Notes under the pieces: model-generated
Databases searched by the model: none
The model's input: the letters and a program-made list of their open reading frames with translations, nothing else
Told to the model about the DNA's origin: nothing
Program-made: the position numbers and the translations under genes
Shown: positions 11,085 to 40,131 of the stretch, piece after piece
Layout of the letters: each line of letters opens with the position of its first letter
How positions within the stretch are numbered: the first letter of the stretch is position 1
Assembly: GCF_013408425.1 (NCBI RefSeq)
Contig: NZ_JACBYV010000001.1
Location: 2,852,001-2,916,000, forward strand
DNA: 64,000 nucleotides
Direction: 5' to 3'
From: Pseudomonas flavescens
Lineage (GTDB): Bacteria > Pseudomonadota > Gammaproteobacteria > Pseudomonadales > Pseudomonadaceae

Positions 11085-11105
11085 GCATCCAGGCTGGAGC
11101 ACCCC

Positions 11106-11669: not shown

Positions 11670-11684
11670 GTGCACGGTTCAACC

Positions 11685-12605: not shown

Positions 12606-12628
12606 GCCGGCCAACCGAGATACCGAGA

Positions 12629-14182: not shown

Positions 14183-14193
14183 GGAGCGTCACC

Positions 14194-14847: not shown

Positions 14848-14879
14848 GCCCCCGGGCCCGGCGCAGAGAGAATCGCGAC

Positions 14880-16106: not shown

Positions 16107-16119
16107 GAGGATACCGTCG

Positions 16120-19444: not shown

Positions 19445-19457
19445 ATCGAGACCTGCC

Positions 19458-20309: not shown

Positions 20310-20313
20310 AGCC

Positions 20314-21407: not shown

Positions 21408-21497
21408 GACGCCCCCACCGCAAACATGAAGCCCTCTTAACTTGATGGCCAGCGGCACGTCTCTTTAACTGCGCGCTCTCCAGAACGGATTCTCGCC

Positions 21498-21953: not shown

Positions 21954-22019
21954 GCCCCTGCATCACCTTCGAACGACCTCCCTGACGCACGGGCCTGCAG
22001 TCCCACTGCACAGCGCTCA

Positions 22020-22034
22020 TTAAGCATTCTTAAT
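22020..22034 (+). promoter_or_regulatory. TTAAG-N5-TTAAT direct repeat, putative response-regulator site 3 (tadG-adhesin operon)
   Basis: TTAAG-CATTC-TTAAT followed by GAAGCGGCGATTG is nearly identical to site 2. It lies 169 bases before tadG. The AT-rich stretch after it (about 22050-22080, with GATATT, TTATTCTTATC and TTTATACC) could hold the -10 element. The 250-base gap between the YbaN gene and tadG otherwise shows no gene. Confidence 0.6.
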
Positions 22035-22202
22035 GAAGCGGCGATTGCCTGATATTGGGAATTATTCTTATCTTTATACCCATTCTGGCACCTCCCACCA
22101 GCATCGCCCACGGATCGCTCGCCTACCCTCCATGACAGCCGCCCACCTCTGCCTCAACTGCCCTCTCATCCTCAGCTGCACTCTGCGTGAGGATCGCCGC
22201 CC

Positions 22203-23863: not shown

Positions 23864-26800
23864 ATGACCACACGCAAGCACTCGCAACGCTATTTCCGGG
23901 CTCTGGCTCTGGAGCCGCGCATCCTTCTGGATGCCGCTGCAGTGGCCACCGCCGCGGACGTGGCTGCCCAGGTTGATGCGACCGCCGAGGCGCCCGGGGT
24001 CAAGGCGACGCCGCAGAACAGCGTAATCACCATTACCGGCAGCACCGACAGTTTTCCGCCGGTGGACCTGTTCAAGAACGTCGACGTTACCCTGGCCGCC
24101 GACAATGAAGAGCTCAAGGAGCTCGTCGTCACCCTCGACACCAGCGGCGCCAACCAAGGGCTGCACGTCGATGGCCAGCTGCTCGCCCTGGAAAACCAGT
24201 CGGGCTTCACGAACGCCAACGGCTATCGCTACACCGTCGAGGTCAGCGGCGCGACGACAACTATCCGCCTGAACTTCGAAGGGACCTCAAGCGCTGTCAC
24301 GCCCGAGCAGATCGAAACCCTGATCGACAGCTTGCAGTACCAGGCCCGGGACACCACGGTCGAAGCCGGCGATCGCCACATCACGCTGCAAAGCCTCAGC
24401 GACACAGGTGAGAGCACCAGGCTGGACATCAGCGCGACCGTTACCCTGGACAACCGGATCAATGCCGCACCGGTGCTGGTCAACGACCAGTCGCTCACAC
24501 CCCGTGAGTCGTTCAGCCCCGAGCAACTGGGCATTGGCGGCGCGACCGAGGTGGTTTATTCCAGCGATGGCAAGTACGCCTACGTGGCGGGCAGCGGCGC
24601 CATCACTTCATTCTCGGTGGACAGCAGTGGCCGCCTGACGCTGGTCGCAACCCTCACCGTCGAGGGGATGAACACGGCCACCGAAATGGTCATCAGCGCC
24701 GATGGCCGCTCGATCTACCTGATCGATACCCTGGGCGCCGGCCAGTTTGAATACAACCCTGATTACATCTACGTTCTCAACGTCAACGGCGGTGCAATCG
24801 AGCATGCCGCCAAGGTCAACAGCAGCAATGGCGGCACGACCGGCGGGTTGGCGCTTTCGCAAGACGGCAGCTACCTGTACGTCGGCACGTCCAGCAACGA
24901 TGTCGCCATCTTCAGCCGTGATGTCGCAACCGGCGGCATCACGTTCCTGGCCCGTGCCGAGGGTGAAGGCGGGAGCAACAGCCGAAACGGTTCGGTCACC
25001 GTCTCCGGCAACCATGTCTATGTGATTTATTCGGGCACCGCCCATGTGCTGATCAGCTACCAGCGCAACGACAATGGCACCCTTACCAAAGTGGCCAGCC
25101 TCAACAGCAGCGCCGCCGGCTTCGCCGCGGTCGACTACAGCCTGACGGTGTCCCAGGATGGTCGCTACCTCTACATCGCTCACCCAGGCAACGGCACCAT
25201 CGACGTCTACGCCACGGGCAATGAGCTTTCGCTGGTAGCAACACAGTCCTTGCCTCGTGTCAGCGACATTGCCCTGAACAGTGACGGCAGCCTGCTCTAT
25301 GCCAGCAGCCGCGATGGCGGTGTGATGGTTTACAAGGTCGCCGCCAATGGCACCCTGAACCTTTTGAGCAGCATCGCCACCCAAACCGATATCCGCGACA
25401 TCGCGCTTTCCGCCGATGGCCGCTCTGTATTGGTGTCAGCCAGCGAAGGCGTCACCCGCTACAGCGCCGTGCAGACCCTGAACATTGGCGAAGCCACGAA
25501 AGTCGCCTCTGGCATCACCCTCAAGGACAGCAACTTCGACGCCCTCGCCAATGGCAACGGTAACTACAACGGTACCGACTTCACCCTCGCTGCCAGTGTT
25601 TCGAGTGGAAGTTTTGGCTTCGCCAATGAAAACGGGCTGGCGCTGTCTGGCACCTCGATCACCCTGAACGGCAACGTCATCGCCACGTTCAGCGTGGCAG
25701 GCGATGGCAAGCTCACCGTTCGTTTCACTGGCGACACGAGCAAGGCCGTTGCCAACCAGGTACTGCACCAGGTCACCTACAGCAGTGCCGCCAGCCTCAC
25801 CGCCGGCAGTTTCGTCAGCCTGACCCTGCAGGGCAGCGATGGACTGTTGGCCAGCAACACCGAGGTGTTGCAGCTATGGGCCAATAGCGCCCCACGCGGT
25901 AATGCCGATGGCTATCGTCCGCCCAAGGCCACCAGCGAAACAGCCTATGAAATCACTCTGCCTGCCGGCCTGTTCACCGACGCCGACGGTGGCAAGCTGA
26001 CCTGGCAGATCAGCGGGTTGCCCGCTGGCCTGCACTTCAACCCGTTGACACGCACCCTCTCCGGCAGCACGACGCAAACAGGCACGCACACCCTGACCCT
26101 CATCGCCACCGACAGTGACGGCAAGAGCGCCGAGCTGGCGTTGGTGCTGGAGGTCGAACAGATCGCCAACCGCGCGCCGGTGGTCAGTGCAGATGCCATC
26201 ACCGCCTTGCCTTCCGTGGTGGTCGGCACCGCTGGCTACAGCCAAGAGTTGCCCGCCGAGCTGTTCGGCGATGCCGACGCCCTATACAGCGACAGCACCC
26301 TGACCTGGAGCGTCAGTGGGCTGCCAGCGGGCCTGAGTTTCGACCCGGCGACCCGCACGCTCAGTGGCGCGCCGAGCGCGGTCAATGATTACGCCCTTGT
26401 CGTGACCGCTACCGACGAACACGGCGCTAGCGCCCAACACACCGTGGTACTTCGTGTAATCAGCCAGGCGGAGGCCGATAACCGCCCGCCCTCCGTTTCA
26501 CCGGGCACCAGTGGGCTGATCCACACCTCGGATGGGCGTATCAACGGCTACAGCGCATCTGTCTACAGCATTGAAATATCCGACGACGGTCGAACCGTGA
26601 TCGTATTGGGTAATGACTCGACTCAACACGCCTTGAATCCAACCGGAAACAGCACGCTCACCGTCTACAGCCGCGACCCGGCGACCGGCGCTCTTACCCA
26701 GCTACAGCGGTTCGTGCAAGGCGCCAGCAACGATGGCAACAACGGCAATGGCATTGAGGTCGATGGTCTGCGCGTCTCTGCCTCAGCCGCCTATTCCGCC

Positions 26801-29800
26801 GACGGCAAGTACCTGTATCTGGTTGGCCAAAAAGAAGGCCAGACAGGCTATGTCCTGAGTAAATTCACCGTGAATGCCGACGGCACACTCAGTGCAACCG
26901 GCGAGAGCGTGACGCTCGGAAATACGCAGGTCAAATACCTGGCCACCTCGGCTGACGGCCATATCTACGCGGTCGCAGGCAATACGCTTTATGCCTACGC
27001 GATCGGCGCGGATGGCACCCTAGGCACAGCAGAGACCTTCACCGACCAAACTTTCGGCGGCACCGGCTACGCCATTGCGATAGACGCCCAGAGCCGCGTG
27101 TTCGTAACCGGTACCAACTCACTGGTCATTTATGAGCGCAATGCGGATGGGCAACTGGTCAGAGTTGCCAGCCACACCGGCAATATCGGCAACTTTGTCC
27201 GCACCATCGCGGTTTCCGACGACGGCTATGTCTACATTTCGACCGGTTCCCCCGGAAGCATCCTGACCTTCCATTACGACACCAGGGCAAAAACGCTCAC
27301 CACGCCCAGCGCTCTTTCCGCCAGCCAGGTCTGGGGGCTGCAACTGTCTGACGATGGAAAAACGCTTTACGCAGGCAACAACACCGGAGCGCTGCACATC
27401 TACAGCATCGGCAGCGATGGCAAGCCAACGCTGGTCAAGACCGTGGGGTACAACGGTGCCAACGGCGACTACCGTGCCCTACGGATCGCAATAGCCCCTG
27501 ACGGTTCGTCGGTCTACGTCGGGTCTTTCTACAACTTCAAGGGGCTAGGCCATATCGCCGTCGAAGACGCGATATCCGTGCCCTATACCGAGAAACAAAC
27601 CACTACCCCAGCCAGTGGCCTGACCCTCTCCGACACCGAGTTCGACGCCCAGGCCAACGGCACCGGCAACTACAACGGCGCCACCCTCACCCTGCAACGC
27701 GAAGGCCGTGCCAATACCGATGACAGCTTCGGCCTCAGCGCAAGCAACGGCCTGAGCTTGGTTGGCGAGGAAGTCCGCCTCGATGGCCAGAAGATCGCCA
27801 GCCTGAGCAACGTCGACGGCAAGCTGACCATCGTCTTCACCGCCGACGTCAGCACCGCCACCGCCAACGCCGTTCTGCGCCAGATCACCTACACCAACGC
27901 AAGCGCCGACCCCGGCGCCAGCATCCGCCTCACCCTGGGCGTGAAAGACCAGTTCACCAGCGGCACCGACAGCATCACCCTGGCCCTGGCCGTCACCCAG
28001 ATCAACGACGCCCCGCAGGCCAGCGCCACGCCACGTCCCAACCTCAGCCAGGATGCCGGGCGCGCCGCTGTGACACTGTTCAGCGGTGCAGCCATCACCA
28101 CCACCGAGCAAGGCCAGCTGATCAACGGCCTCACCTTCACCGTCTCCGGTCTCAAGGATGGCGCCAACGAAACCCTGCGTATCGATGGCAGCAGCATTGC
28201 CTTGGTCGCGGGTAGCGGCACCACCCGCGGTGGCCATGCCTGGACCGTGACCCTCGATACCACCACCGGTGCGGCCACGGTGACGTTGTCCAGCGCTGCC
28301 GGGCTGACAGGCGCCCAAGCCAGCGCCCTGGTCAGCGGGCTGGGCTATGCCAACCTCGACAAGGCCACCGGCACCACGGGCGAGCGCACCGTCACCCTGA
28401 CCAGCATCAAGGACAACGGCGGGAGCGCCAACGGTGGCCAGGACACCGCTCAGTTGCAGATCAGCAATACCCTGCAAGTGACGGTTAACCAAAGCCCGAC
28501 CCTGGGCGCCGAAGTCGGCGCAGGCGAAGTGGCCGAAATCATCAGCTCCAGCGACTACCCAAGCCCGTACGACGGTACCAAGAGCGTCATCCAGGTAGGC
28601 GACAAGGTGTATGTGGTGCGTACCACTACCGTGTGGAACTCGGACGCCCTCGCCGACGTACCGATCAGCACCCTCCACGTCTTCCAGCGTGGCGCGGACG
28701 GTACGCTGCAACTGCTGTCGAGCCTCGATTCGAACGACCAGAACGGCCTGCTCAGCGCCAGCGGCCTGGGGGTATCGGCTGACGGTACTACGCTGTACGC
28801 CATCACCGACAAAGGGATCGCCCTGTTCGCCCGCGACAGCGAAACCGGTGCCCTCACCGCCCTCGGCGCGATCGGTGCAGACCTCGGCTTGGTCAACGAC
28901 CTGCACATCAGCGAAAACACCGCCTACGTCAGCAGCTCCAGCGGCGTGACCGTGTTGCAGCGCGGCGCCGACGGCTGGGTAGCCGGCAGTACCTTCGCGC
29001 CACCGGGCGACAGTAGCTTCACCGACCTGCAAATGTCTGCCGACGGCAGCTTCCTGTATGTCGCCACCACCGGCGGCAATACCCTGCTCAGCGTGTTCAG
29101 GGTCGGCAGTGACGGCGCCCTCACCCGCGGCCCTGATGTGCAAGGCAATGGGCAGGAGCATTACGTCAGCCGCCTGGCGCTGTCCGCAGACGGCAGGTCG
29201 CTGTACCTCATCGACAACGATGAAAGCCTGCGCAGCCTTTCGATATCGGCAAGCGGCGAGTTGACCCTCAGCGGCAACGTGGTTGACGTGCAGAGGCCGA
29301 TCAAGCAACTGCTCGTCAGCCCAGACAGCCAATTCCTGGTCGTCGTCGGCGGAAAACAGGTGACGCTGCATGCCCGTGCCAGCGACGGCTCGCTGGGCGC
29401 CGCACGTGCACTCACCCGCCTTGCCGATAACGGCACCGAGCTGCGTGGCGCCAACTTCAGCACCGATGGCACGCAGCTCTACGTGACCGGTTCGTTCTCC
29501 TGGAACGAGGGGCTGCTGGTACTCGACCTCAAGCCCGCCAGCGTGAGCTATGTAGAGGCGGCAGACGCTTCGGTCCTGCTTCCGGACGCCAGCTACAGCG
29601 CCGCATTGACTGCCGGTGCGAGCATCGTGATCGAACGCACTGGCGGGGCCCAGGGCACCGATCGCTTCACCTTCCTGGAAGATAACGCCCTGAGCCTGGT
29701 CAACGGCCAGATTCTGAATGGCACCACGGTGATCGCCGACTTCGTTCAGGCCAATGGCACGCTGACCCTGACCTTCACCCGCGAGGCCACGCAAACCCAG

Positions 29801-32800
29801 GCCGAGAACATCCTGAGTCAGATCGCCTACGACAACCTGTCTGGCGAGCCGGCCAAGCAAATGAGCTTCTCGGTCAGCATCAACGAGGGTGGGGTGAGCT
29901 CGGCCCAAACCGCCACCCTGAACCAGGTCGTCGCGCTGCTGCCTGGCGGTACCCTGTCCGACCCGCAACTGGATGCGCTGAACAACGGCGCCGGTAACTA
30001 CAAAGGCTCATCCATCGTGATAAGCCGTGACGGCCAGGCCAATGCCGATGACGTATTCGACTTCCTCGACGGCAGCGGCCTGCAGTTCAGGAACGGCGCC
30101 ATCTGGCTTGGCAACATGAGCCTTGCCACCCTGGCCTCGGCCAACGGCACGCTGACCGTGACCTTCACCAGCGACGTCAGCCGTGCCGACGCGCAGAACG
30201 TGCTGCGCGGCATCGCCTACCGCAACGCCAGCGACGACCCTACCGCCGGGGGTAGCAAGGCCACCTTCAACCTGACATTCAACGATGGCAGCGGCTTCAG
30301 TGACGAGCGCACCCTCGAGGTCAACCTGGTGGGCGTGAACGACACCGCCATCATCGACACCACCGCACTGACCCCAACCTTCAATGCCGAAGGCGAGCGG
30401 GTGCCACTGTTCGAGAACACCACCATCGACACCGTCGAGGCGGGCCAGAACATTCACCGGGTCATCGTCACCATTACCGGCGTAACCGCAGGCGACGTGC
30501 TGGGTGTGGACGGCGGCAGGGTCGACCTTGCCCGGAGCATCGACGGCAGCGTATTCGTCGGCCGAAGCGCTATCCAGTACATGGTCAGCTACAACGCCGG
30601 CACCGGGACCACCACGGTCACGCTCTACGTAGCCCGCTCTGCCGCGGCCACCACCGAGGTCATCGACAGCCTCAGCTACGGCCACACCGGCAATGAGAGC
30701 AGCGGTCAACGCAACATCAGCCTGAGCATCGTGGAAAGCGTGGCCGACTGGCGCGAAAACGACACCACCGTGGTACAGCGAAGTGCCGTGGTGAACCTTA
30801 CCGCCGCCACTGAGCCCAACACGCCACCCACGCTGGGCGGTATTTCAGGCTCCGTACCCTACACCGAGCAGCAGGAACCGGTGCTGATCGCGCCGGGCGC
30901 AAGCATTGGCGATACTCAACTGGACCGTTTCAATGGCGGTGCCGGCAACTACGATGGCGCCACGCTCACCATCACCTTGGGTGACGGCAAGAGTTCCGCC
31001 GACAGCCTGGGCTTCAAGGCCGGCAACGGCCTGACCCTGGCGGGCAACGCCCTGCAAAAGGATGGCAAGGTGATCGGCAGCGTAACCGTTGCCGATGGCG
31101 TGATGACCATTACCTTCACCGATGCCCACAGCGCCATCCCGACCACGGCCGACGTACAGAACACGCTGCGCCAGGTCACCTACGCCAACAGCAGCGACGC
31201 ACCGCCCGCCAGGGTCGAGGTGAGCATCAAGCTGGCCGACCAGCGCGGCCTGGCGTCAACCGCGCAAGACCTGAACATCGCGATTACCGCCGTCAACGAC
31301 GCGCCAGCCATCAACGATGACCCGATCCTGTCGCTGGGCGACCTCGAACGCCTGCAAGACCTGACCAACATTCCCGGCCTTTCGACACCCACCACCAGCG
31401 TGGTGTCCAGCGATGGCAGCCGCGTCTACGTGGCCGACAGCCAAGGCAACATCGCGCTGTTCAGCCGCAATACCGAAACGGGCGAACTGACCCATGTGCA
31501 AACCCTCCCAGGCCAACAGGAGGTCGTAAGCCTGCAACTCAGCGCCGACGGCAACAGCCTGTACGTGCTGAAGGTCGACGGCAACGCCAACACCATCGCC
31601 TGGTTCACTATCGGCACCGACGGCACCTTGCAGGTGCAGGGTTCATTCTCCGAGTCGCTGTGGAATATCAAGGGCCTCGCCCTGTCCGACGATGGCAAGA
31701 ACCTGTACCTGATCCACACCACCAACCTGTACGTGTACAACCGCGACCCGGTAACGGGTGCAATCAGCCTGGCCACCACCCTCGAAGGCTCCATGACCAG
31801 CGCGCCTTACCTGTGGGATCCACAGGAAATCGTCGTCAGAGGCGAGCTGGTGTTCGTCGTCACGCACCCCAGCAATGGCTCGACCCTGCTCGTCTACAAG
31901 CGTGATGCCAACGGTGGCCTCAGCTCACTGGGCCATATCCACTCAGGCGAAACCGACGCCACCGGCAAGACCATCACCCTGGACCGCGTTCAGCACATCG
32001 CCGTCAGCGCCGATGGCCGTACCATTATCATCGCCAACAGCCGCACCACCACGACTGAAGGCGGTGGCGGGGATGGCACGCCGGTAACCACCATCATCCA
32101 TGACCACCCGCAGCAGATCGACGCCTTCCGTCTCGACCCCGCCACCGGCGCCCTCACCCACCAGGGCACCCTCAACGACACCCCGACGGTCGAAGACATC
32201 GCCGTCTCCAGCGACGGCAAGGCCCTGTTCGTCATCCGTGCCGACGGCTCGGTGGCGTACTACTCGGCCATTACCCTGGAGAAGCTCGACTCCTCGCAGA
32301 ACGGCTTGCAAGGGACCAGCCATATCTCGGTGTCGGCCGATGGCGGCGTTATCGTCACCGGCAGCAAACTGCTGGTGCTCAATGCACCTGCGGTGCCAGG
32401 CCCTACCGTCGAGGTCAACGGCGCACCTGTCGTGCTGTTCCCAGCGCTGACCCTGAACGATGCCGAACTGGATGCCGCCAATGATTACCAGGGCGCCAGC
32501 GTCACCATCAGCGGCCAGAGCGGCGATCAGTTCGGCTTTCTCAACAATGGCACCTACCATCTCGATGGCGAGCGCATTGTGCGTGGTGATGTAGACGTCG
32601 CAACACTGACGCAGAACGGCAATAGAGCGGTACTGAGCTTTGGCGTTGGCGTGACCCAGAGCGAAGCCACCGCACTGCTGCGCCAGGTGACCTACACCAG
32701 CACCTCGGCTGTGCCAGGCAGCCACGCTGTCAGCATCGTGCTCAATGATGGTGCCGTGAACAGCCAGGCGCGCAGTGTCGACGTCACCCTGCTGGCGCCG

Positions 32801-34138
32801 AACCAGGCGCCCTTGATCAACGACGCGCACCGCGACTACGCATTGAACCAGGCCAAGGCCGGTCAGGCCTACAGCATCACGCTGCCGGCCAACCTGTTCA
32901 GCGATCCCGAAGGCGACAGCCTGACCTGGACGGTGACGGGTCTACCTGCGGGGCTGAGCTTCAACCCGACCACCCACGTCATCTCCGGCAACACGACCGT
33001 AATGGGTGAGCACAGCGTGGTGGTCACGGCCAGAGACCCGAGCGGCGGCGCCGTCTCGCTGGAGCTGACGCTGAACGTCAGCAACTCCGCGCCGGTCGCT
33101 GGTAGCGATTACAGCCTGGACAGAACAGCTCCCGGGGAAAGCTACAGCGTTACCCTGCCGCAAAATCTGTTCAGCGACGCCAATGACAGCGACCTGACCT
33201 GGGAACTCGAGCTGCCCGAGTGGCTGAGCTATGACGCGGCCACCCGCACCCTGTCTGGCACCGCGCCGGATGTGGCGGGCAATCATTCGATTACCATCAC
33301 CGCCACCGACCCACATGGCGCGACGGTTTCTCGCACGCTAACCCTGGCGGTGGCCCTGCCCCCGGTACAAGACACGGGCGAAGCCGCCCTGCCGGAGCTG
33401 AACACCGGCTTCGCGCAGCAGGCGAACACGACGCCAACTGCCAGCTTCGGCGGCCAGGCCCTGAACGCCCCTCTGTTCGGAGCCAGCGATGTAACGGCCA
33501 ACACCCCGGCCGAAGCGCCTACCTCCGCGCAACCGGCACCAACGGTGCAAAGCCTGCTGCGCAGCAGCGGTAACGGCCTGGCCGACGGACGCGGTTCGCT
33601 GAGCCAGCAACTGGCCAACGCCGACACGGTGCTCACCGATACGGGCCACCAGAACAGCGCAGGCAGCTTCAGCGTCGAGGGCTCGCGCCTGAGCGCAAGC
33701 GTAGACCTGAGCTCGGGCGGTGCCCGCAGCATCACCCTCGAACTGCCCGGGGAATTGCCCGATGGCAGTGCACCGCAGCGCATCACCCTGGCCAACGGCC
33801 TGCCGCTGCCGAGCTGGGCATCGTTCGATGCGCGCAGCGGGGAGCTGCGCATCGATCGTGAGCGCCTGCAGCGCGATGGCGTGCTGCGCCTGACCCTGAT
33901 CAGCCGCGATGGCGAGGGCCACGAACAGCGTACGCCCATGGACATTCGTGCCGAGGGCGCGGCGGCGCAAAGCACCAGTGAAGCGCTGCAGCAACCCGCT
34001 CCCGCAGCAGAGTCGCTGCCGGAGCGGATACGCCAGGACACCTCGAGCGCGTTGCTCAGCGAAGCGCTCGAGCTGCTCGAGCAATTGAGCGACCTGGCTG
34101 GGGAGCCGGTCGCTGTCACCACACGCCATATCGCCTGA
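23864..34138 (+). CDS. Giant LEPR-XLL-type adhesin with beta-propeller, cadherin/Ig-like and novel repeats (3,424 aa)
   Basis: Very large surface or secreted protein. The N-terminus has no ordinary signal peptide but has LEPRILLDAA at residues 16-25, the LEPR-XLL motif seen at the start of giant adhesins. Four lactonase/YVTN-like beta-propeller modules are visible (about 222-540, 882-1235, 1559-1892, 2485-2845), with repeating SADGRxxY patterns. Between them are at least six copies of a ~130-residue repeat (about 543-672, 1245-1382, 1899-2022, 2022-2155, 2332-2475, 2855-2975) with NGxGNYxGA and LRQVTYxN motifs. Putative Ig/dystroglycan-like domains (about 682-865 and 2982-3162) carry LTWxVSGLPAGLSF. 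No RTX nonapeptides were found. The C-terminus is low-complexity. ATG 23864 has a GGAAG Shine-Dalgarno. The four genes after it encode the probable exporter. Confidence 0.85.
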   Translation: MTTRKHSQRYFRALALEPRILLDAAAVATAADVAAQVDATAEAPGVKATPQNSVITITGSTDSFPPVDLFKNVDVTLAADNEELKELVVTLDTSGANQGLHVDGQLLALENQSGFTNANGYRYTVEVSGATTTIRLNFEGTSSAVTPEQIETLIDSLQYQARDTTVEAGDRHITLQSLSDTGESTRLDISATVTLDNRINAAPVLVNDQSLTPRESFSPEQLGIGGATEVVYSSDGKYAYVAGSGAITSFSVDSSGRLTLVATLTVEGMNTATEMVISADGRSIYLIDTLGAGQFEYNPDYIYVLNVNGGAIEHAAKVNSSNGGTTGGLALSQDGSYLYVGTSSNDVAIFSRDVATGGITFLARAEGEGGSNSRNGSVTVSGNHVYVIYSGTAHVLISYQRNDNGTLTKVASLNSSAAGFAAVDYSLTVSQDGRYLYIAHPGNGTIDVYATGNELSLVATQSLPRVSDIALNSDGSLLYASSRDGGVMVYKVAANGTLNLLSSIATQTDIRDIALSADGRSVLVSASEGVTRYSAVQTLNIGEATKVASGITLKDSNFDALANGNGNYNGTDFTLAASVSSGSFGFANENGLALSGTSITLNGNVIATFSVAGDGKLTVRFTGDTSKAVANQVLHQVTYSSAASLTAGSFVSLTLQGSDGLLASNTEVLQLWANSAPRGNADGYRPPKATSETAYEITLPAGLFTDADGGKLTWQISGLPAGLHFNPLTRTLSGSTTQTGTHTLTLIATDSDGKSAELALVLEVEQIANRAPVVSADAITALPSVVVGTAGYSQELPAELFGDADALYSDSTLTWSVSGLPAGLSFDPATRTLSGAPSAVNDYALVVTATDEHGASAQHTVVLRVISQAEADNRPPSVSPGTSGLIHTSDGRINGYSASVYSIEISDDGRTVIVLGNDSTQHALNPTGNSTLTVYSRDPATGALTQLQRFVQGASNDGNNGNGIEVDGLRVSASAAYSADGKYLYLVGQKEGQTGYVLSKFTVNADGTLSATGESVTLGNTQVKYLATSADGHIYAVAGNTLYAYAIGADGTLGTAETFTDQTFGGTGYAIAIDAQSRVFVTGTNSLVIYERNADGQLVRVASHTGNIGNFVRTIAVSDDGYVYISTGSPGSILTFHYDTRAKTLTTPSALSASQVWGLQLSDDGKTLYAGNNTGALHIYSIGSDGKPTLVKTVGYNGANGDYRALRIAIAPDGSSVYVGSFYNFKGLGHIAVEDAISVPYTEKQTTTPASGLTLSDTEFDAQANGTGNYNGATLTLQREGRANTDDSFGLSASNGLSLVGEEVRLDGQKIASLSNVDGKLTIVFTADVSTATANAVLRQITYTNASADPGASIRLTLGVKDQFTSGTDSITLALAVTQINDAPQASATPRPNLSQDAGRAAVTLFSGAAITTTEQGQLINGLTFTVSGLKDGANETLRIDGSSIALVAGSGTTRGGHAWTVTLDTTTGAATVTLSSAAGLTGAQASALVSGLGYANLDKATGTTGERTVTLTSIKDNGGSANGGQDTAQLQISNTLQVTVNQSPTLGAEVGAGEVAEIISSSDYPSPYDGTKSVIQVGDKVYVVRTTTVWNSDALADVPISTLHVFQRGADGTLQLLSSLDSNDQNGLLSASGLGVSADGTTLYAITDKGIALFARDSETGALTALGAIGADLGLVNDLHISENTAYVSSSSGVTVLQRGADGWVAGSTFAPPGDSSFTDLQMSADGSFLYVATTGGNTLLSVFRVGSDGALTRGPDVQGNGQEHYVSRLALSADGRSLYLIDNDESLRSLSISASGELTLSGNVVDVQRPIKQLLVSPDSQFLVVVGGKQVTLHARASDGSLGAARALTRLADNGTELRGANFSTDGTQLYVTGSFSWNEGLLVLDLKPASVSYVEAADASVLLPDASYSAALTAGASIVIERTGGAQGTDRFTFLEDNALSLVNGQILNGTTVIADFVQANGTLTLTFTREATQTQAENILSQIAYDNLSGEPAKQMSFSVSINEGGVSSAQTATLNQVVALLPGGTLSDPQLDALNNGAGNYKGSSIVISRDGQANADDVFDFLDGSGLQFRNGAIWLGNMSLATLASANGTLTVTFTSDVSRADAQNVLRGIAYRNASDDPTAGGSKATFNLTFNDGSGFSDERTLEVNLVGVNDTAIIDTTALTPTFNAEGERVPLFENTTIDTVEAGQNIHRVIVTITGVTAGDVLGVDGGRVDLARSIDGSVFVGRSAIQYMVSYNAGTGTTTVTLYVARSAAATTEVIDSLSYGHTGNESSGQRNISLSIVESVADWRENDTTVVQRSAVVNLTAATEPNTPPTLGGISGSVPYTEQQEPVLIAPGASIGDTQLDRFNGGAGNYDGATLTITLGDGKSSADSLGFKAGNGLTLAGNALQKDGKVIGSVTVADGVMTITFTDAHSAIPTTADVQNTLRQVTYANSSDAPPARVEVSIKLADQRGLASTAQDLNIAITAVNDAPAINDDPILSLGDLERLQDLTNIPGLSTPTTSVVSSDGSRVYVADSQGNIALFSRNTETGELTHVQTLPGQQEVVSLQLSADGNSLYVLKVDGNANTIAWFTIGTDGTLQVQGSFSESLWNIKGLALSDDGKNLYLIHTTNLYVYNRDPVTGAISLATTLEGSMTSAPYLWDPQEIVVRGELVFVVTHPSNGSTLLVYKRDANGGLSSLGHIHSGETDATGKTITLDRVQHIAVSADGRTIIIANSRTTTTEGGGGDGTPVTTIIHDHPQQIDAFRLDPATGALTHQGTLNDTPTVEDIAVSSDGKALFVIRADGSVAYYSAITLEKLDSSQNGLQGTSHISVSADGGVIVTGSKLLVLNAPAVPGPTVEVNGAPVVLFPALTLNDAELDAANDYQGASVTISGQSGDQFGFLNNGTYHLDGERIVRGDVDVATLTQNGNRAVLSFGVGVTQSEATALLRQVTYTSTSAVPGSHAVSIVLNDGAVNSQARSVDVTLLAPNQAPLINDAHRDYALNQAKAGQAYSITLPANLFSDPEGDSLTWTVTGLPAGLSFNPTTHVISGNTTVMGEHSVVVTARDPSGGAVSLELTLNVSNSAPVAGSDYSLDRTAPGESYSVTLPQNLFSDANDSDLTWELELPEWLSYDAATRTLSGTAPDVAGNHSITITATDPHGATVSRTLTLAVALPPVQDTGEAALPELNTGFAQQANTTPTASFGGQALNAPLFGASDVTANTPAEAPTSAQPAPTVQSLLRSSGNGLADGRGSLSQQLANADTVLTDTGHQNSAGSFSVEGSRLSASVDLSSGGARSITLELPGELPDGSAPQRITLANGLPLPSWASFDARSGELRIDRERLQRDGVLRLTLISRDGEGHEQRTPMDIRAEGAAAQSTSEALQQPAPAAESLPERIRQDTSSALLSEALELLEQLSDLAGEPVAVTTRHIA

Positions 34139-34161
34139 ACACTGCCAAGGATCATCGATCA

Positions 34162-35868
34162 ATGAACCGCAAAACCTTCGACCGTTCCACCCTGCGTCTG
34201 GCCATCGCCTGTGCCGCGCTGGGCCTGAGTGCCTGCGCGGTCACCCCGCAAGAGCTGACACCCGAGCAGCAACTGGCCGACGCGCAGAAAGATCGCAGCG
34301 CGATGTTCGACGATCAGGAGCCGGTGACGCGCGCCATCAGCCTGGACGAAGCCATGGCCCGCGCCGTGAAGTACAACCTGCAACAGCGCCTGGGCCTGAT
34401 GCAGCGCGCCCTGGAAGACAACAGCCTGAGCGTCGCCAACCTCAGCCTGCTGCCTCAACTGGCGGCCAGTGCCGGGTGGAAGGGACGCGACAATGTCGCC
34501 GGTTCATCCAGCGAATCGGTCACCACCGGGCGGCAATCCCTGGAGCCGTCGACCAGCAGCGACCGTTCCAGCCGCGACGCCAACCTGCGCCTGTCGTGGA
34601 ACGTACTCGACTTCGGGGTCAGCTACTTCAGCGCCAAGGCCCAGGCCAACAAGGTACTGGCCGCCGAAGAGGCGCGCCGCAAGGTGGTCGCCGATATCGT
34701 TCAGCAGGTTCGTGACGCCTATTGGCAGGCCGCCAGCGCCGAGCGCCTGCAGCCGGAGGTGCAACGCGCCTTGAGTGATGCCCGCGGCGCTCTGGACCAG
34801 GCCCGGCAGACCGAGCGCCAGCGCCTCGTTGCGCCCCTGGAATCGCTGCGCTACCAGAAGAGCCTGCTGGAAATGATCCGCCAGCTCGAAGTGGTGGAAG
34901 GTGAACTGGCGGTGTCCAAGGCGCGCCTAGCCAGCCTGATGAATCTGCCGCCGGCGACGACCTTCAGCCTGGTTCTGCCGGACGAATCGAGCTACACCCA
35001 ACCGGCCCTGGCCTACAACCTGGCGGATCTCGAAGTGACCGCCATGACGGAGCGCCCGGAGATTCGCAGCGAGAGCTATCAGGCACGCAATGCCGTGCTG
35101 GAAACCAGAGCCGCGATGCTCAAGCTGCTGCCGGGAGCCAACCTGTTCGTCGGCGCCAACTACGACAGCAACAGCTATCTGGTCAACGACAACTGGGCCG
35201 ACGCCGGCATGCAGGTGAGCTGGAACCTGTTCAACGTCCTGGCTTACCCGGCCATCAAGAAAACCGGTGAAACCCGCCTGCAGGTCGCCGAGCTGCGCCG
35301 CCAGGCCATGCGCATGGCGGTGCTAACCCAGGTCAACGTGGCCTGGCGCGAGTACGAGCGTTCCAGCCAGGTGTTCGCCCGTTCCAATGAACTGCAGCAG
35401 GTGCAACGCGGCATCTTGCGGCAGAGTGAAAGCGCCTTCTCCAGCCAGGCGCAGAGCCGACTGGAGCGCGTACGCACGGCAACCGAAACGGTACTGGCGA
35501 CCCGTACCCGCGACCGCGCCTTCGCCGAACTGCAGGTCGCTCACGGCGCCGTCTACCAGGCCGCCGGCCTCGATCCGCTGCCCGAACGCATCGCTGGCAG
35601 CAGCGTCGATGAGCTGACCCGCGCCATCGCAGGCAACTCCATGCGCCTCAACCAGGGCCAGGGTGCCGTGCCGGCCGGCATCGCCGCCACGCAACAGGTT
35701 CATTACGCTACCTCCACGCCGCTGGTGACGGCTGCGGCAACGAGCGCGCCACTGGTAGCCCAGCGTGCACAGCCACCCGCCAAGACCCTGCGCCTGGATA
35801 TGTGGGAAAGCCTCGGCTCGTTGCGGGGCGCCGAGCTGGTTCCGGTGGAGCAGGCCAATGGCCGCTGA
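34162..35868 (+). CDS. TolC-family outer-membrane efflux lipoprotein (adhesin exporter)
   Basis: Outer-membrane factor of 568 residues with lipobox LGLSAC. Two long helical halves typical of the OEP/TolC fold are visible: ISLDEAMARAVKYNLQQRLG starts the first and LAYNLADLEVTAMTERPEIR the second, with RLSWNVLDFGVSYF and QVSWNLFNVLAYP as the paired strand regions. The C-terminus has an extra Ala/Thr-rich tail. AAGGA precedes ATG 34162, 23 bases after the adhesin stop. It should provide the outer-membrane channel for the adjacent HlyD-type adaptors. Confidence 0.88.
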   Translation: MNRKTFDRSTLRLAIACAALGLSACAVTPQELTPEQQLADAQKDRSAMFDDQEPVTRAISLDEAMARAVKYNLQQRLGLMQRALEDNSLSVANLSLLPQLAASAGWKGRDNVAGSSSESVTTGRQSLEPSTSSDRSSRDANLRLSWNVLDFGVSYFSAKAQANKVLAAEEARRKVVADIVQQVRDAYWQAASAERLQPEVQRALSDARGALDQARQTERQRLVAPLESLRYQKSLLEMIRQLEVVEGELAVSKARLASLMNLPPATTFSLVLPDESSYTQPALAYNLADLEVTAMTERPEIRSESYQARNAVLETRAAMLKLLPGANLFVGANYDSNSYLVNDNWADAGMQVSWNLFNVLAYPAIKKTGETRLQVAELRRQAMRMAVLTQVNVAWREYERSSQVFARSNELQQVQRGILRQSESAFSSQAQSRLERVRTATETVLATRTRDRAFAELQVAHGAVYQAAGLDPLPERIAGSSVDELTRAIAGNSMRLNQGQGAVPAGIAATQQVHYATSTPLVTAAATSAPLVAQRAQPPAKTLRLDMWESLGSLRGAELVPVEQANGR

Positions 35869-36628
35869 TCAGCCGCGCGCCACGGAACGCTTCTGGCCCT
35901 CCGTCCTGGCGATACTGGTCGCCACGGCAGCCAACCTCGCCCATGCCGATGAAACGAGCAACGAGCTGCGTGTGCAGCTCAGCCCGGTCCGTCAGACGGT
36001 GCTGTCCAGCGAGCTCAGCGGCAAGCTCACCGAGTTGGCCGTCAAGGAAGGTGATCGTTTCAAGGAAGGCCAGCGCCTGGCCGCCTTCGATTGTTCGGTG
36101 CAGCGCGCGCAACTCAACCGCAGTGAAGCGGTGCAGCGCGGTGCGCAGAAGAAGCTCGACGTCGCCAAGCGCCTCGATGCCCTGGAATCCATCAGCCAGG
36201 CCGAGGTCGCCCAGGCCCAGGCCGACATGGCCGTGGCCCAGGCGGAAAGCGGCGTGGGCCGCGCCATGCTGAAGCGCTGCAATCTGGATGCGCCCTTTGC
36301 CGGACGTGTTTCGCAACGCATGGCACAGCGCTTCCAGCACGTCGCCGAAGGCACCGAGTTACTGGCGATCTATGACGACAGCGCCTACCAGCTGGAACTG
36401 ATCGCCCCCTCGACCTGGATGACCTGGCTCAAGCCCGGCGTCGAGTTCGAGGTCAAACTGGACGAAACCGGGCAACGCTACCCCGCGCAGATCGAACGGC
36501 TCGGCGCGGCCATCGACCCACTCAGCCAATCGCTCAAGGTATTCGCGCGCATCACCGGCGACAACGCGGGTCTGCTCCCGGGAATGAGCGGCGTCGCGCT
36601 GCTGCAACCGCCGGCAGATGGCTCATGA
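35858..36628 (+). CDS. HlyD/RND-type periplasmic adaptor protein
   Basis: Small membrane-fusion protein of 256 residues. A signal peptide ends near NLAHA, then a biotinyl-lipoyl-like half-motif (SSELSGKLTELAVKEGDRF), a short helical hairpin (about 80-135), the second lipoyl half (CNLDAPFAGRVSQR) and a beta-barrel (DDSAYQLELIAPSTW). It starts at ATG 35858 inside the tolC-like gene (11-base overlap) and overlaps the next gene by four bases, so the exporter genes are tightly coupled. The longer upstream frame is ignored because it lacks a signal peptide start. Confidence 0.85.
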   Translation: MAADQPRATERFWPSVLAILVATAANLAHADETSNELRVQLSPVRQTVLSSELSGKLTELAVKEGDRFKEGQRLAAFDCSVQRAQLNRSEAVQRGAQKKLDVAKRLDALESISQAEVAQAQADMAVAQAESGVGRAMLKRCNLDAPFAGRVSQRMAQRFQHVAEGTELLAIYDDSAYQLELIAPSTWMTWLKPGVEFEVKLDETGQRYPAQIERLGAAIDPLSQSLKVFARITGDNAGLLPGMSGVALLQPPADGS

Positions 36629-37980
36629 ACGCCAGTGTCACCACCCTGCCTGACAAACGCGCCGAGCGCATGGCGCTGTTGCTGCAACTCGAGCGTCGCG
36701 CCCGCGCCCAGAACGACGTGGCCGGCCTCGGTTTCCTGATGGTCAACGATACGCGCCAGCTACTCGACTATCAGGAAGCCTTTCTGTGGGATGCCGACAA
36801 GGGACGTATCAGCGCCTGCTCCGGGCTCGCCCAGGTAGAGGCCAATGCTCCCCTGATGCTGTTTCTGGGCCGCCTCTGTTCGGGCTGGGATAGCCAGCCC
36901 CGGGCGGCCGAGTTGCGTGATCTGAGCACCGCCGATGCCCCCGCTGCTCTGCAGGCCGGATGGTCGGAATACCTGGCGCCCCGCCTGCTGCGCCTGCCTC
37001 TGAAAGACCGCGACGGCCAGGTGCTCGGCAGCCTGCTGCTGAGCCGCGAACCCGCGCTGGCACGTCCGGAACGGGCGCTGCTGGAGCTACTGCTGGACGC
37101 CTACGGGCATGCCTGGGCCAGCCTCATGGGCGGCAAGAAGCGCTCGTTGGTCAATCGCTTGCGCAAGCGACCACGGCGGATCGCGCTGGTCGCCTGCGCC
37201 CTGGCACTGTCGACCGCGCTGCTGCCGGTGCATCAGACGGTACTGGCCCCGGCCGAAATCATGCCGCGCAACCCGGCGGTGCTGCGTGCCCCGCTGCAGG
37301 CGGTGGTCGAACGCATTCTGGTGCAACCCAACCAGGAGGTGAAGAACGGCGATGCGCTGGTACAGCTGGACAAGCGCGAGCTGGAAAGCCGACTGGAATC
37401 GTCCCGGCAAACCTTCGCGGCGGCCGACGCCCAGTTGCGCCAGACGCGCCAGCAGGCACTGTTCGACGAGCGTGCCAAGGCCGCCCTGGCCGAACTGATC
37501 ACCCGTCGCGACCAGGCCCGCGCCGACCTGGCCTTCATCGAAGACAACCTGCAGCGCAGCCTGATTCTGGCCCCCCGTGATGGGGTGGCGATCTTCGACG
37601 ACCCCAGTGACTGGATCGGCCGGCCGGTCAGCCTCGGCGAGCGCATCATGCAGGTCGCCGATCCCCACGACGCGCGCCTGGAAATCCAGCTACCGGTGGC
37701 CGATGCCATCGCCCTGGAGCCGGGTGCCGAGGTGCTGCTGTTTCTCAACAGCCAACCGGGCAGCCCCCTCCCCGCCAGCCTCGAGCGCTATGGCTATCGT
37801 GCCTCAGCGAGTGCGGACGGCAGCATGGCTTACCGCCTGCAAGCGGGCTTCAGCGAGGCCGACCCGCGCCTGCGCGTCGGCCTCAAGGGCACGGCCAAGC
37901 TATATGGCGAACGTACCTTGCTGATTCACTACCTGCTGCGCCGCCCCCTGGCAGCGCTGCGCGTCCACCTGGGCTGGTAG
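36625..37980 (+). CDS. GAF domain-HlyD fusion adaptor
   Basis: Inner-membrane protein of 451 residues. A cytoplasmic N-terminal GAF-like domain (about 16-165; AGLGFLMVNDTRQLLDYQEAF, LRLPLKDRDGQVLGSLLLS) is followed by a basic linker, one transmembrane helix (about 185-203) and a periplasmic HlyD domain. In the latter, LRAPLQAVVERILVQPNQEV and LILAPRDGVAIFDD are the lipoyl halves and a coiled coil lies between them (about 250-305). GAF domains bind small ligands or act as dimerisation modules, so the adaptor may be gated by a cytoplasmic signal. It overlaps its neighbours at both ends. Confidence 0.82.
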   Translation: MNASVTTLPDKRAERMALLLQLERRARAQNDVAGLGFLMVNDTRQLLDYQEAFLWDADKGRISACSGLAQVEANAPLMLFLGRLCSGWDSQPRAAELRDLSTADAPAALQAGWSEYLAPRLLRLPLKDRDGQVLGSLLLSREPALARPERALLELLLDAYGHAWASLMGGKKRSLVNRLRKRPRRIALVACALALSTALLPVHQTVLAPAEIMPRNPAVLRAPLQAVVERILVQPNQEVKNGDALVQLDKRELESRLESSRQTFAAADAQLRQTRQQALFDERAKAALAELITRRDQARADLAFIEDNLQRSLILAPRDGVAIFDDPSDWIGRPVSLGERIMQVADPHDARLEIQLPVADAIALEPGAEVLLFLNSQPGSPLPASLERYGYRASASADGSMAYRLQAGFSEADPRLRVGLKGTAKLYGERTLLIHYLLRRPLAALRVHLGW

Positions 37981-40131
37981 ATGAACGCACCGCTCGCTCT
38001 GCCCTCCACGAATCGCGCACCACGCCTGCCCGATCTGCGCCGGACCCTGCGCCTACACCCAGGCCCTCGCTCGCGAGACGGCGCGCCAAGCTGGACACTC
38101 GAAGACGCTGCCCGCGGGCGTTTCTACCGGATCGGCTGGGCCGAAGCGGAAATTCTCGCCCGCTGGCAGATGGGCAGTGCCCAGGCAATCGCCGAAGCAA
38201 TTAACCGGGAAACCACACTGGCCCTGAGCCGTGAGGACGTCGACGCCTTCAGCCAGTTCCTGCGCAGCATGCAACTGGTCGAAGTCAGTGGTGACGCAGC
38301 CCTGGCCGATCTGCGCAAACGCGGCGAAGCGGGCAAGAGCAGCGGTTGGAGCGCCTGGCTGCTGAGCAACTACCTGTCGATCCGCATTCCGCTGCTTCGT
38401 CCGGATCGCTTCCTGTCGCGCAGCTATCGCCACGTCGCCCCGCTGTTCAGCCGCAGCTTCGCACTGGCCACGCTCACGGCAGCAGTGCTTGGCCTGTATC
38501 TGGCGGCGCGCCAGTGGGACAGTTTCTTACACACCTTCCTGCATTTCTTCAGCCTGGAAGGCGCGCTGCTGGCAGCCGTAACGCTGAGCCTGACCAAGGT
38601 GCTCCACGAATTCGGACATGCCTACACCTGCAAACGCTATGGCTGCCGAGTGCCGACCATGGGCGTGGCCTTTCTGGTCCTGTGGCCGGTGCTCTACACC
38701 GACGCCAGCGGCGCCTGGCGGCTCACCTCACGACGTCAACGGATGGCCATCGGCGCTGCCGGCATGGGCGTGGAACTGTGTCTGGCCGCCTGGGCGACAC
38801 TGGCCTGGAGCTTTCTACCGGATGGCATGCTGCGCAGCGCGGCATTCATGCTGGCCAGTACCACCTGGATACTCACCCTCGCGGTGAATCTCAATCCGCT
38901 GATGCGCTTCGACGGCTACTTCCTGTTCTCCGACCTGCTCGACGTACCCAACCTGCAGGAGCGCGCCTTCGCCCTCGCCCGCTGGCGCATGCGCGAAACC
39001 CTGTTCGGCTTCGGCGATGCGCCTCCCGAACACTTCGCACCGGCGCTGCGGCGCGTGTTGCTGGGCTACGCATTCGCCACCTGGGTGTACCGCTTCTTCC
39101 TGTTTCTGGGCATCGCCCTGCTGGTCTATCACTTCGCCTTCAAGCTGCTCGGCGTGCTGCTGTTCATCGTCGAGATCGTGCATTTCATTCTCCGCCCGAT
39201 CATCGGCGAGCTGCGCCACTGGCACCAACGCCGCAAGGACTACCGCATGAACCGCAACACCCTGATCTGCGCCAGCGTATTGCTGGTCGCACTCTTTCTG
39301 CTGGCCTGGCCGTGGCGCAGCCGAATCGAGGCGCCAGCCCTGTTACGCGCAGAACGACAGGCGATTCTGCTCACCCCGGCGGGCGCCAGGCTGGAGCGTA
39401 TAGAGGTGCAGCCGGGGGAACCCGTACGTGCTGGGCAAACGCTGTTTCGCCTGCACTCGGCGCAGCTGCAGCACGACCTGCAAGGCCTCGAGCGAGAAAT
39501 CGAGCAACTGCGCCAGCAAAGCAGCCTGCAGGTTCGCGCCAGTGAAGGATCCGCCCGCCAGTCGATCGCCCGGGAAGAATTACAGGTGGCGCTCGAGCGG
39601 CGTCTTGCCCTGCAGGAGCGAATGGCGCAACTGCAGGTCAAGGCACCGTTCGATGGCGTGCTGGTCGATAGCGCCGCTCCGCTGGCCGCAGGTGAATGGT
39701 TGCCTGCAGGCGAATGGCTGGGCACGGTCGCCAATGCAGGCAGCGAACGGGTCGAAGCGTTCGTCGGCGAGGCGGATCGCGAGCGCCTGCAGGTCGGCGC
39801 TCAGGCCTGGTTCCTGCCAGAAGATCCGGGGCGCCCGCGCCGCCTGCTGCAGGTCGAGGACATTGGCCAGACCGCAGTACGCCAGCTCACCTCTGCCCCG
39901 GAACTGGCGTCGGTTTATCAGGGCGCGCTGGCGGCGCAACTCGATGAGCAGCGTGTACCGGTTCCCGAACAGGCGCTGTATCGTGTGCAACTGCGCCCTC
40001 TGGACAACCACAGCGAAGCGATGCCGATCACCCTGCGTGGCAATGCCTCGATCAGTGGTGATGCCCGCAGCCCGCTGATGCAGGCGTGGCGCCGCGTGCT
40101 GACTATTCTGATACGTGAATCGGCGTTTTGA
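37981..40131 (+). CDS. M50 zinc metalloprotease-HlyD fusion (exporter core)
   Basis: Polytopic protein of 716 residues. The N-terminal cytoplasmic region (about 1-120) has a winged-helix/peptide-recognition-like look. An M50 site-2-protease-type core carries the zinc motif HEFGH (209-213) and the distal NLNPLMRFDG motif (303-312) supplying the third ligand. At least six hydrophobic segments lie between 155 and 410. A transmembrane helix near 425 leads into a periplasmic HlyD domain (about 450-716; LTPAGARLERIEVQPGEPVRAG, LQVKAPFDGVLVDS). No ABC ATPase is found in the operon. Similar M50-HlyD proteins occur with peptide exporters. Here it may process or translocate the LEPR-XLL adhesin. Confidence 0.85.
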   Translation: MNAPLALPSTNRAPRLPDLRRTLRLHPGPRSRDGAPSWTLEDAARGRFYRIGWAEAEILARWQMGSAQAIAEAINRETTLALSREDVDAFSQFLRSMQLVEVSGDAALADLRKRGEAGKSSGWSAWLLSNYLSIRIPLLRPDRFLSRSYRHVAPLFSRSFALATLTAAVLGLYLAARQWDSFLHTFLHFFSLEGALLAAVTLSLTKVLHEFGHAYTCKRYGCRVPTMGVAFLVLWPVLYTDASGAWRLTSRRQRMAIGAAGMGVELCLAAWATLAWSFLPDGMLRSAAFMLASTTWILTLAVNLNPLMRFDGYFLFSDLLDVPNLQERAFALARWRMRETLFGFGDAPPEHFAPALRRVLLGYAFATWVYRFFLFLGIALLVYHFAFKLLGVLLFIVEIVHFILRPIIGELRHWHQRRKDYRMNRNTLICASVLLVALFLLAWPWRSRIEAPALLRAERQAILLTPAGARLERIEVQPGEPVRAGQTLFRLHSAQLQHDLQGLEREIEQLRQQSSLQVRASEGSARQSIAREELQVALERRLALQERMAQLQVKAPFDGVLVDSAAPLAAGEWLPAGEWLGTVANAGSERVEAFVGEADRERLQVGAQAWFLPEDPGRPRRLLQVEDIGQTAVRQLTSAPELASVYQGALAAQLDEQRVPVPEQALYRVQLRPLDNHSEAMPITLRGNASISGDARSPLMQAWRRVLTILIRESAF

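What the first reader, a model, noticed from the sequence alone, without database searches (positions are those of the whole stretch)
23864..40131. Giant LEPR-XLL adhesin with a dedicated exporter that has no ABC ATPase
Directly seen: a 3,424-residue repeat protein with N-terminal LEPRILLDAA is followed, with gaps or overlaps of 23, -11, -4 and 0 bases, by a TolC-like lipoprotein, a HlyD adaptor, a GAF-HlyD protein and an M50-HlyD fusion. Established: type I adhesin secretion uses an ABC ATPase, an adaptor and TolC, normally with C-terminal RTX/secretion signals. Neither an ABC transporter nor RTX repeats are present here. Inference: the M50-HlyD protein replaces the ABC component, giving a distinct secretion or processing pathway for LEPR-XLL proteins. 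What powers it is unknown.
Basis: partly seen in the sequence, partly recalled or inferred. Interest (0 to 1): 0.78.

Follow-up and report, generated by a model that had tools for sequence, protein, structure and literature searches.

The report
Giant adhesin with leader-peptidase exporter
A very large predicted bacterial surface protein is encoded with its own export genes, which lack the usual energy-supplying ATPase and instead include a protease joined to a tag-recognising part, hinting at an undescribed way to process and export giant proteins.

Summary
In detail: a 3,424-residue LEPR-XLL protein, then TolC-like lipoprotein, HlyD, GAF-HlyD and M50-HlyD, with exactly the stated gaps. It is a conserved module. 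In 198 Pseudomonadaceae genomes M50-HlyD (>300 bits) and a LEPR start (E<1e-3) occur together in 78, M50-HlyD alone in 2, LEPR alone in 0, neither in 118. NCBI's own LEPR model shows the association too, less cleanly: 17 both, 9 and 8 alone, 151 neither, of 185.

(1) M50-HlyD begins with a PqqD/RRE-like domain: RRE, intramembrane protease and adaptor in one; an RRE-fused intramembrane peptidase is described as the remover of daptide leaders. (2) Many giants share a C-terminal motif. (3) The module occurs in 3 of 30 genomes without a recognisable type I ABC ATPase. (4) In this branch it sits beside Tad/Flp pilus genes.

Best reading: LEPR-XLL is a leader bound by the RRE and cut by M50; the adhesin leaves through the HlyD/TolC-like conduit. 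Shown: co-occurrence, domains, intact catalytic residues, terminal motifs. Inferred: binding, cleavage, transport. Unknown: energy. M50 replacing the ABC is not shown.

The parts
8673..23807 (+). two-component pair (8673-9338, 9325-10758) followed by a Tad/Flp pilus locus: prepilin peptidase, CpaB/RcpC, secretin, CpaD, TadA-type ATPase, T2SSF protein, TPR protein, TadE-like, DUF454, TadG-like
   Evidence: Pfam (TadE and Tad hits are just under Pfam's cut-offs). Names TadZ, TadB and TadF for 14880-16106, 17393-18424 and 20820-21407 rest on position, recalled; Pfam found nothing in these three
22203..23807 (+). TadG-like protein, 56 bp upstream of the giant gene; a relative lies upstream of the module on the same strand in 17 of 31 genomes tested
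23864..34138 (+). giant LEPR-XLL protein, 3424 aa, beta-propeller (Lactonase) and Ig-like (He_PIG, Big_9) repeats, no RTX
23909..23938 (+). LEPRILLDAA, residues 16-25: proposed leader recognition motif
33995..34105 (+). conserved C-terminal motif of the giant (degenerate SLPERIRQ here) and following LL-rich stretch
   Evidence: E 1.1e-7 in G000, which is also a row of the profile
34162..35868 (+). TolC-like outer membrane factor (OEP), lipobox LSAC
   Evidence: lipobox read by eye
35858..36628 (+). HlyD/RND-type periplasmic adaptor
   Evidence: TIGR01730 118.9 bits, over cut-off
36625..37980 (+). GAF-HlyD: GAF (about residues 9-172, 36649-37140), a helix at 183-198 taken as the TM segment, HlyD adaptor
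37981..40131 (+). RRE(PqqD-like)-M50-HlyD fusion
38047..38268 (+). PqqD/RRE-like domain, residues 23-96, predicted beta-beta-beta-alpha-alpha-alpha
38605..38619 (+). HExxH of the M50 domain (residues 209-213); presumed third ligand Asp311 at 38911-38913
   Evidence: invariant in 60 of 60; the equivalents invariant in 15 of 15 distant relatives; ligand role recalled
40226..40819 (+). heme oxygenase gene downstream, also found downstream in four related loci
   Evidence: functional link not tested

Best explanation
The five genes form one substrate-specific processing and export module. The N-terminal LEPR-XLL segment of the giant protein is a leader: it is bound in the cytoplasm by the PqqD/RRE-like domain of the M50-HlyD protein and then cut by its intramembrane protease domain. 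The C-terminal motif shared by many of the giants is a second export signal. The three adaptors (HlyD, GAF-HlyD, M50-HlyD) and the TolC-like lipoprotein form the conduit to the surface, and GAF may sense a cytoplasmic ligand. No dedicated type I ABC ATPase is part of it; the energy source is unknown. Shown: gene order, co-occurrence, domain content, conserved catalytic residues, both terminal motifs. Inferred: binding, cleavage, transport and its direction.
For: Co-occurrence: 78 of 198 genomes have both M50-HlyD (>300 bits) and LEPR (E<1e-3), 2 M50-HlyD only, 0 LEPR only, 118 neither. Of 109 such M50-HlyD loci, 95 have a LEPR hit (E<0.05) on the contig and all 95 are within 27 kb on the same strand. 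The independent model NF012209 in 185 gammaproteobacterial genomes, at its curated cut-off: 17 both, 9 M50-HlyD only, 8 LEPR only, 151 neither, p 4.8e-12; at E<=0.005: 14, 12, 2, 157. In 79 named loci phmmer finds GAF-HlyD in 76, HlyD in 63 and OEP in 59, flanks being cut. RRE: Pfam PqqD matches 6 of 15 distant M50-HlyD proteins at E<=0.05 (best 7.2e-7) and two M50-HlyD places over the cut-off; hhalign against PqqD gives probability 84.7, E 6.6e-6 for the window branch and 96.2 for the distant branch; the branches are homologous over full length (E 3.5e-99). HExxH and Asp invariant. Daptide peptidase model NF041824: 168.5 bits over residues 42-400. In daptides an RRE is N-terminally fused to a site-2 protease, precursors carry an N-terminal ELExMEAP motif, and MpaP is described as the RRE-dependent intramembrane peptidase that removes the leader (PMC10036551, passages). 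C-terminal motif: all 37 hits with E<=0.0065 in 198 genomes lie in M50-HlyD genomes, 35 within 25 kb of that gene. G162, G340 and G344 have the module but no recognisable T1SS-type ABC.
Against: No binding, cleavage or secretion was tested. The window's own genome has T1SS-type ABC genes elsewhere. NF041824's cut-off (300 bits) is not reached. The RRE call for the window branch is moderate: Pfam PqqD matched none of 16 of its members at E<=0.01, its profile found only chance-level rows in the PDB, and G009's protein, over the PqqD cut-off in the genome search, is under it in the protein scan (21.9 against 23.4 bits). With NF012209, 9 of 26 M50-HlyD genomes have no LEPR hit and 8 of 25 LEPR genomes have no M50-HlyD match; some are low-scoring or fragmented, but this was not resolved. 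The C-terminal motif is in only part of the giants: 35 of 69 by regular expression; 37 of 80 M50-HlyD genomes at E<=0.0065, a cut set just below the first hit outside; at E<=0.05, 45 of 57 genomes with a hit have M50-HlyD and 12 do not. Model A2 was built from M50-linked proteins. A Vibrio giant with LEPR-XLL and C-terminal RTX is in print (PMC10868602, passage).
Confidence: 0.5

Rival explanations
1. The module is a type I secretion system whose ABC ATPase is supplied in trans; M50-HlyD only processes the substrate.
For: The window genome has LssB-type ABCs at 345110 and 4594841 and a PrtD-type one at 4917942, all over cut-off, and a full-length HlyB-like match at 1819979 (588.6 bits, under the LssB cut-off). 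LssB-type ABC over cut-off in 25 and PrtD-type in 18 of 30 module genomes. A shared C-terminal motif resembles the logic of type I substrates.
Against: G162, G340 and G344 carry the module (all five genes seen in G162 and G340, four in G344) without an ABC over either cut-off; their best PrtD scores (223-231 bits) and LssB scores (293.5 and 316.7 bits; E 1.2e-84 in G344) are in the range of general ABC exporters. A HlyB model was not run; only part of the candidates in each genome was scored; MsbA- or MacB-like exporters were not excluded. ABC-like ORFs in 3 of 79 neighbourhoods.
Confidence: 0.2
2. Retention and release switch: LEPR-XLL holds the exported giant at the inner membrane, and M50 cuts it, under GAF control, to release the adhesin, as LapG does for LapA (recalled).
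For: RRE, protease, sensor (GAF) and adaptors are combined in two neighbouring proteins. Catalytic residues are intact. No LapG-type peptidase family was hit among the 26 window proteins scanned with Pfam.
Against: It does not say how the giant crosses the membranes. The daptide homologue is described in leader removal, not release.
Confidence: 0.2
3. The giant enters the periplasm by Sec, with LEPR-XLL part of an atypical signal, and then leaves through the TolC-like channel.
For: Basic N-terminus (positive net charge before the motif in 52 of 57) followed by an Ala-rich stretch.
Against: No 19-residue stretch reaches mean hydropathy 1.6 in any of 57 N-termini. This control is imperfect: the window HlyD, probably a Sec substrate, reaches only 1.43. 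The motif keeps a charged E and R in the middle.
Confidence: 0.15
4. The module serves the Tad/Flp pilus: the giant is a pilus-associated component and the Tad machinery helps to export or display it.
For: A TadG-like match lies 8-14.5 kb upstream of M50-HlyD, same strand, in 17 of 31 genomes tested; Tad genes on both sides in Marinomonas.
Against: 14 of 31 genomes tested have no TadG match at E<=1e-5, so the module occurs without this TadG.
Confidence: 0.08

Closest known systems
Daptide leader peptidase MpaP (RRE fused to an intramembrane site-2 protease; NCBIfam NF041824)
   Same: RRE-like N-terminus, M50 HExxH membrane domain, neighbouring substrates with a conserved N-terminal motif containing LE (PMC10036551 passages)
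   Different: A HlyD adaptor is added; substrates are giant proteins (frames of 1,672 aa in L062 to 13,848 aa in G053), not short peptides; 168.5 bits against a cut-off of 300
Type I secretion of giant adhesins (LapA/LapBCE, SiiE, Pectobacterium MRP)
   Same: HlyD adaptors, TolC-like channel, one giant repeat protein encoded beside them, C-terminal motif in the substrate
   Different: No ABC ATPase in the locus, no RTX in the window giant, N-terminal LEPR motif, M50 and GAF fusions. PMC6963963 (section 19 part 1) names LapG together with MRP, which speaks for another system; I did not locate MRP in a genome
LEPR-XLL domain family NF012209
   Same: N-terminal LExRxLL motif on giant proteins
   Different: Only two papers of the library hold the name; the one passage I read gives no partner. 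Here it is tied to M50-HlyD
Pectobacterium flp/tad cluster with adjacent two-component system (PMC3767616)
   Same: Two-component genes plus flp/tad, reported also in Brenneria and Marinomonas, matching this branch
   Different: HlyD, hemolysin and heme oxygenase have 0 occurrences in its text, and the passages seen do not mention the giant or its exporter

Membership tests
Type I secretion system | ABC ATPase encoded with the adaptor | tested here: not met
   0 of 184 window ORFs by pattern; 3 of 79 named neighbourhoods and 1 of 40 stretches L001-L040 hold any ABC-like ORF
Type I secretion system | T1SS-type ABC ATPase somewhere in the genome | tested here: inconclusive
   Present in the window genome and most others; not recognisable by LssB and PrtD models in G162, G340 and G344 of 30
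Type I secretion system | HlyD-family adaptor and TolC-like channel | tested here: met
RTX adhesins | RTX nonapeptide repeats | tested here: not met
   0 matches in the window giant; no RTX Pfam family. Some giants of the distant branch have 8-12 matches (L006, L008, L011)
RRE-fused intramembrane peptidase (daptide type) | N-terminal RRE/PqqD domain | tested here: met
   topology. Only moderate for the window branch itself (hhalign 84.7; no Pfam PqqD match in 16 members)
RRE-fused intramembrane peptidase (daptide type) | HExxH and downstream Asp | tested here: met
RRE-fused intramembrane peptidase (daptide type) | NF041824 curated cut-off (300 bits) | tested here: not met
   168.5 bits
RRE-fused intramembrane peptidase (daptide type) | cuts a leader off its substrate | not testable with these tools
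   needs biochemistry
LEPR-XLL (NF012209) | curated cut-off 17 bits | tested here: inconclusive
   13.1 bits in the protein scan, 25.5 bits and over cut-off in the genome search
Tad/Flp pilus locus | TadA-type ATPase, secretin, CpaB, prepilin peptidase, TadE/G beside the module | tested here: met
   (TadE and Tad models just under cut-off)

The most novel reading that the evidence does not exclude
An ABC-independent export pathway for giant surface proteins, widespread in Pseudomonadota, in which a RiPP-like leader (LEPR-XLL) is read by an RRE domain, cut by a fused intramembrane protease, and coupled directly to a HlyD/TolC-like conduit; in one branch it is built into Tad pilus loci.
Probability: 0.4. 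Interest if true: 0.9.

Novelty: new variant of a known kind. Interest (0 to 1): 0.78.

Why it matters
LEPR-XLL giants carry a database label, and the paper searches here found no partner or role for it. Tying the motif to an RRE-protease-adaptor fusion turns the label into a testable leader hypothesis. It would move RiPP-type leader recognition from short peptides to some of the largest bacterial proteins, and would show a HlyD/TolC-like system working without a dedicated ABC ATPase.

Tried and rejected
Pectobacterium MRP as the same system: judged different because PMC6963963 (section 19 part 1) names LapG together with MRP; I did not check the MRP locus itself. Vibrio CabH and Dickeya hlyD papers: seen in passages, not related. 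Fold searches of the whole M50-HlyD model return HlyD adaptors and barely test its N-terminus; the N-terminal profile against PDB sequences gives only chance rows; RRE was then tested by Pfam PqqD and hhalign. Promoter scan: none found; terminators below the shuffle mean, so operon limits were not settled. A plasmid search gave only partial matches and was not followed up. The viral library, E. coli genomes and phages were not searched.

Rows dropped and cuts: five rows under 300 bits (G216, G187:C144, G289, G239 and the second G361 piece) are left out of the 80-genome count. LEPR hits weaker than E 0.0241 were not pasted into. The E<=0.005 cut and the E<=0.0065 cut for the C-terminal motif were chosen after seeing the tables; counts at NF012209's curated cut-off and at E<=0.05 are given beside them. 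For one search, 31 of the 79 loci were given. For the ABC test, 30 of the 80 M50-HlyD genomes were given. One search kept the best 80 of 552 confirmed relatives. Some 'decoys' are, by position, edge-truncated giants that the script labelled as other. Six of the 198 genomes gave rows to A2 and six to A8. The 38 of 40 N-termini with the motif were fetched because a LEPR profile had hit there.

Print claim: searches showed no paper that describes M50-HlyD with LEPR-XLL, judged from listings and from passages of a few papers; the library lacks most subscription journals.
Full report
WHAT IS THERE. The window lies at 2852001-2916000 of a one-contig 5.95 Mb genome. The closest named relatives of its M50-HlyD protein are Pseudomonas/Phytopseudomonas (84% Phytopseudomonas dryadis; 92% Pseudomonas flavescens). 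The giant has Lactonase-type beta-propeller and He_PIG/Big_9 Ig-like repeats and no RTX match. No ORF of the window passes a pattern screen for ABC ATPases (184 ORFs); Pfam's ABC_tran touches only the TadA-type ATPase, under its cut-off.

CO-OCCURRENCE. In 198 Pseudomonadaceae genomes, 80 have M50-HlyD above 300 bits (109 loci) and 78 have a LEPR N-terminus at E<1e-3; 78 have both, 2 M50-HlyD only (each with a weaker LEPR hit), 0 LEPR only, 118 neither. Of the 109 loci, 95 have a LEPR hit (E<0.05) on the same contig; all 95 are within 27 kb and on the same strand, 43 upstream and 52 downstream of M50-HlyD. The other 14 have none on their contig; in 6 of them the giant's C-terminal motif is on the contig (one by a hit of E 0.0086). 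Because model A2 came from M50-linked proteins, I repeated the test with NCBI's NF012209 in 185 gammaproteobacterial genomes. At its curated cut-off: 17 both, 9 M50-HlyD only, 8 LEPR only, 151 neither, p 4.8e-12. At E<=0.005: 14, 12, 2, 157, p 2.7e-12. So the association is strong but not exclusive with this short model, which also passed its cut-off in 1 of 14 control genomes. M50-HlyD relatives are found in 78 of 249 genomes of a phylum sample and in 79 named loci (the best of 552 relatives) from alpha-, beta-, gamma- and zetaproteobacteria and desulfo-groups. In these 79 loci phmmer finds GAF-HlyD in 76, HlyD in 63 and OEP in 59; an ABC-like ORF occurs in 3. Against exclusivity in print: a Vibrio giant of about 8,000 aa is described with LEPR-XLL and C-terminal RTX (PMC10868602, passage).

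TWO SIGNALS. Of 40 N-termini fetched at LEPR hits, 38 show the motif in an open frame. Among 57 N-termini with the motif, the residue after D/S, left free by the search pattern, is G or A in 57 of 57. Many giants also share a C-terminal motif, roughly G-[KR]-x-[GAS]-[FL]-[ST]-x-Q-[LF]-R. A regular expression finds it in 35 of 69 giants and 29 of 812 other ORFs. A profile trained on 31 giants hit 19 of 38 held-out giants at E<=0.1, plus 14 frames labelled 'other' that by position are truncated or unlinked giants; the first hit that I would call unrelated is at E 0.22. In 198 genomes all 37 hits with E<=0.0065 are in M50-HlyD genomes (37 of 80), and 35 lie within 25 kb of that gene; six of the genomes gave rows to the profile. 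At E<=0.05, 45 of 57 genomes with a hit have M50-HlyD. In the window the motif is degenerate (SLPERIRQ).

ENERGY. In 30 M50-HlyD genomes with few contigs, chosen from 80, the LssB-type ABC is over its cut-off in 25 and the PrtD-type in 18. G162, G340 and G344 have neither, and their scores against both models are in the range of general ABC exporters; a HlyB model was not run. G340 and G344 are single-contig, 99-100% complete genomes; G162 has about 60 contigs. In G340 and G162 all five genes were seen; in G344 four, the plain HlyD gene not being detected in the gap where it is expected. So a dedicated T1SS ABC does not seem to be a general requirement, but the window genome has several, and other ATPases were not excluded.

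TAD CONTEXT. Upstream in the window lies a two-component pair and a Tad/Flp pilus locus ending in a TadG-like gene 56 bp before the giant. In 17 of 31 tested genomes a TadG-like match lies 8-14.5 kb upstream of the M50-HlyD match on the same strand, 17 of 17, including Pectobacterium, Brenneria, Pantoea, Serratia, Corticibacter, Bordetella ansorpii and Marinomonas; 14 of 31, of the more distant branches, have no match. The flp/tad cluster with its two-component system is described in Pectobacterium (PMC3767616, passages); the passages seen do not mention the giant or its exporter.

MECHANISM AND STANDING. The nearest experimentally studied relative is the daptide system: RRE N-terminally fused to a site-2 protease, precursors with an ELExMEAP motif, and a statement that MpaP, an RRE-dependent intramembrane peptidase, removes the leader (PMC10036551, passages; NF041824 168.5 bits). 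By homology the LEPR segment is best read as a leader for the RRE-M50 part, with HlyD and TolC-like parts as conduit. Binding, cleavage, transport, energy source and the role of GAF are inferred or unknown. It works partly like type I secretion but fails its defining ABC feature in the locus, and it resembles but does not reach the cut-off of the daptide peptidase family. I therefore call it a new variant that joins two known kinds, and hold the stronger claim of a separate pathway at 0.4.

Noticed in passing
window 40226-40819; L041, L042, L046, L057: A heme oxygenase gene lies downstream of M50-HlyD in the window and four related loci, while many of the best structural matches of the GAF domain are bilin-binding phytochrome GAF domains; a bilin link is speculation.
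   Followed up: partly
L062, L063 (Marinomonas): Tad genes lie on both sides of the adhesin-exporter module, TadG upstream and prepilin peptidase to TadA downstream.
   Followed up: partly
G053:C1:429854 and 474843: Two giant LEPR-XLL frames in tandem (13,848 and 3,186 aa) upstream of one M50-HlyD gene.
   Followed up: no
L002/L003 (G162), L034, L095, L119, L185: Gene order varies: the giant can sit between HlyD and GAF-HlyD or downstream of M50-HlyD, yet the same components stay together.
   Followed up: partly
G192, G247, G330, G213, G198, G285, G306: One in-frame stop codon is reported inside the M50-HlyD match in several genomes; open frames of 697-699 aa suggest it lies near one end of the match. 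Not examined.
   Followed up: no
window 21498-21953; L057: A DUF454 gene sits within the Tad block, and beside the heme oxygenase gene in L057.
   Followed up: no
L006, L008, L011: Giant frames beside distant-branch M50-HlyD genes hold 8-12 RTX-like nonapeptide matches, so RTX and the M50-HlyD module can occur together.
   Followed up: no
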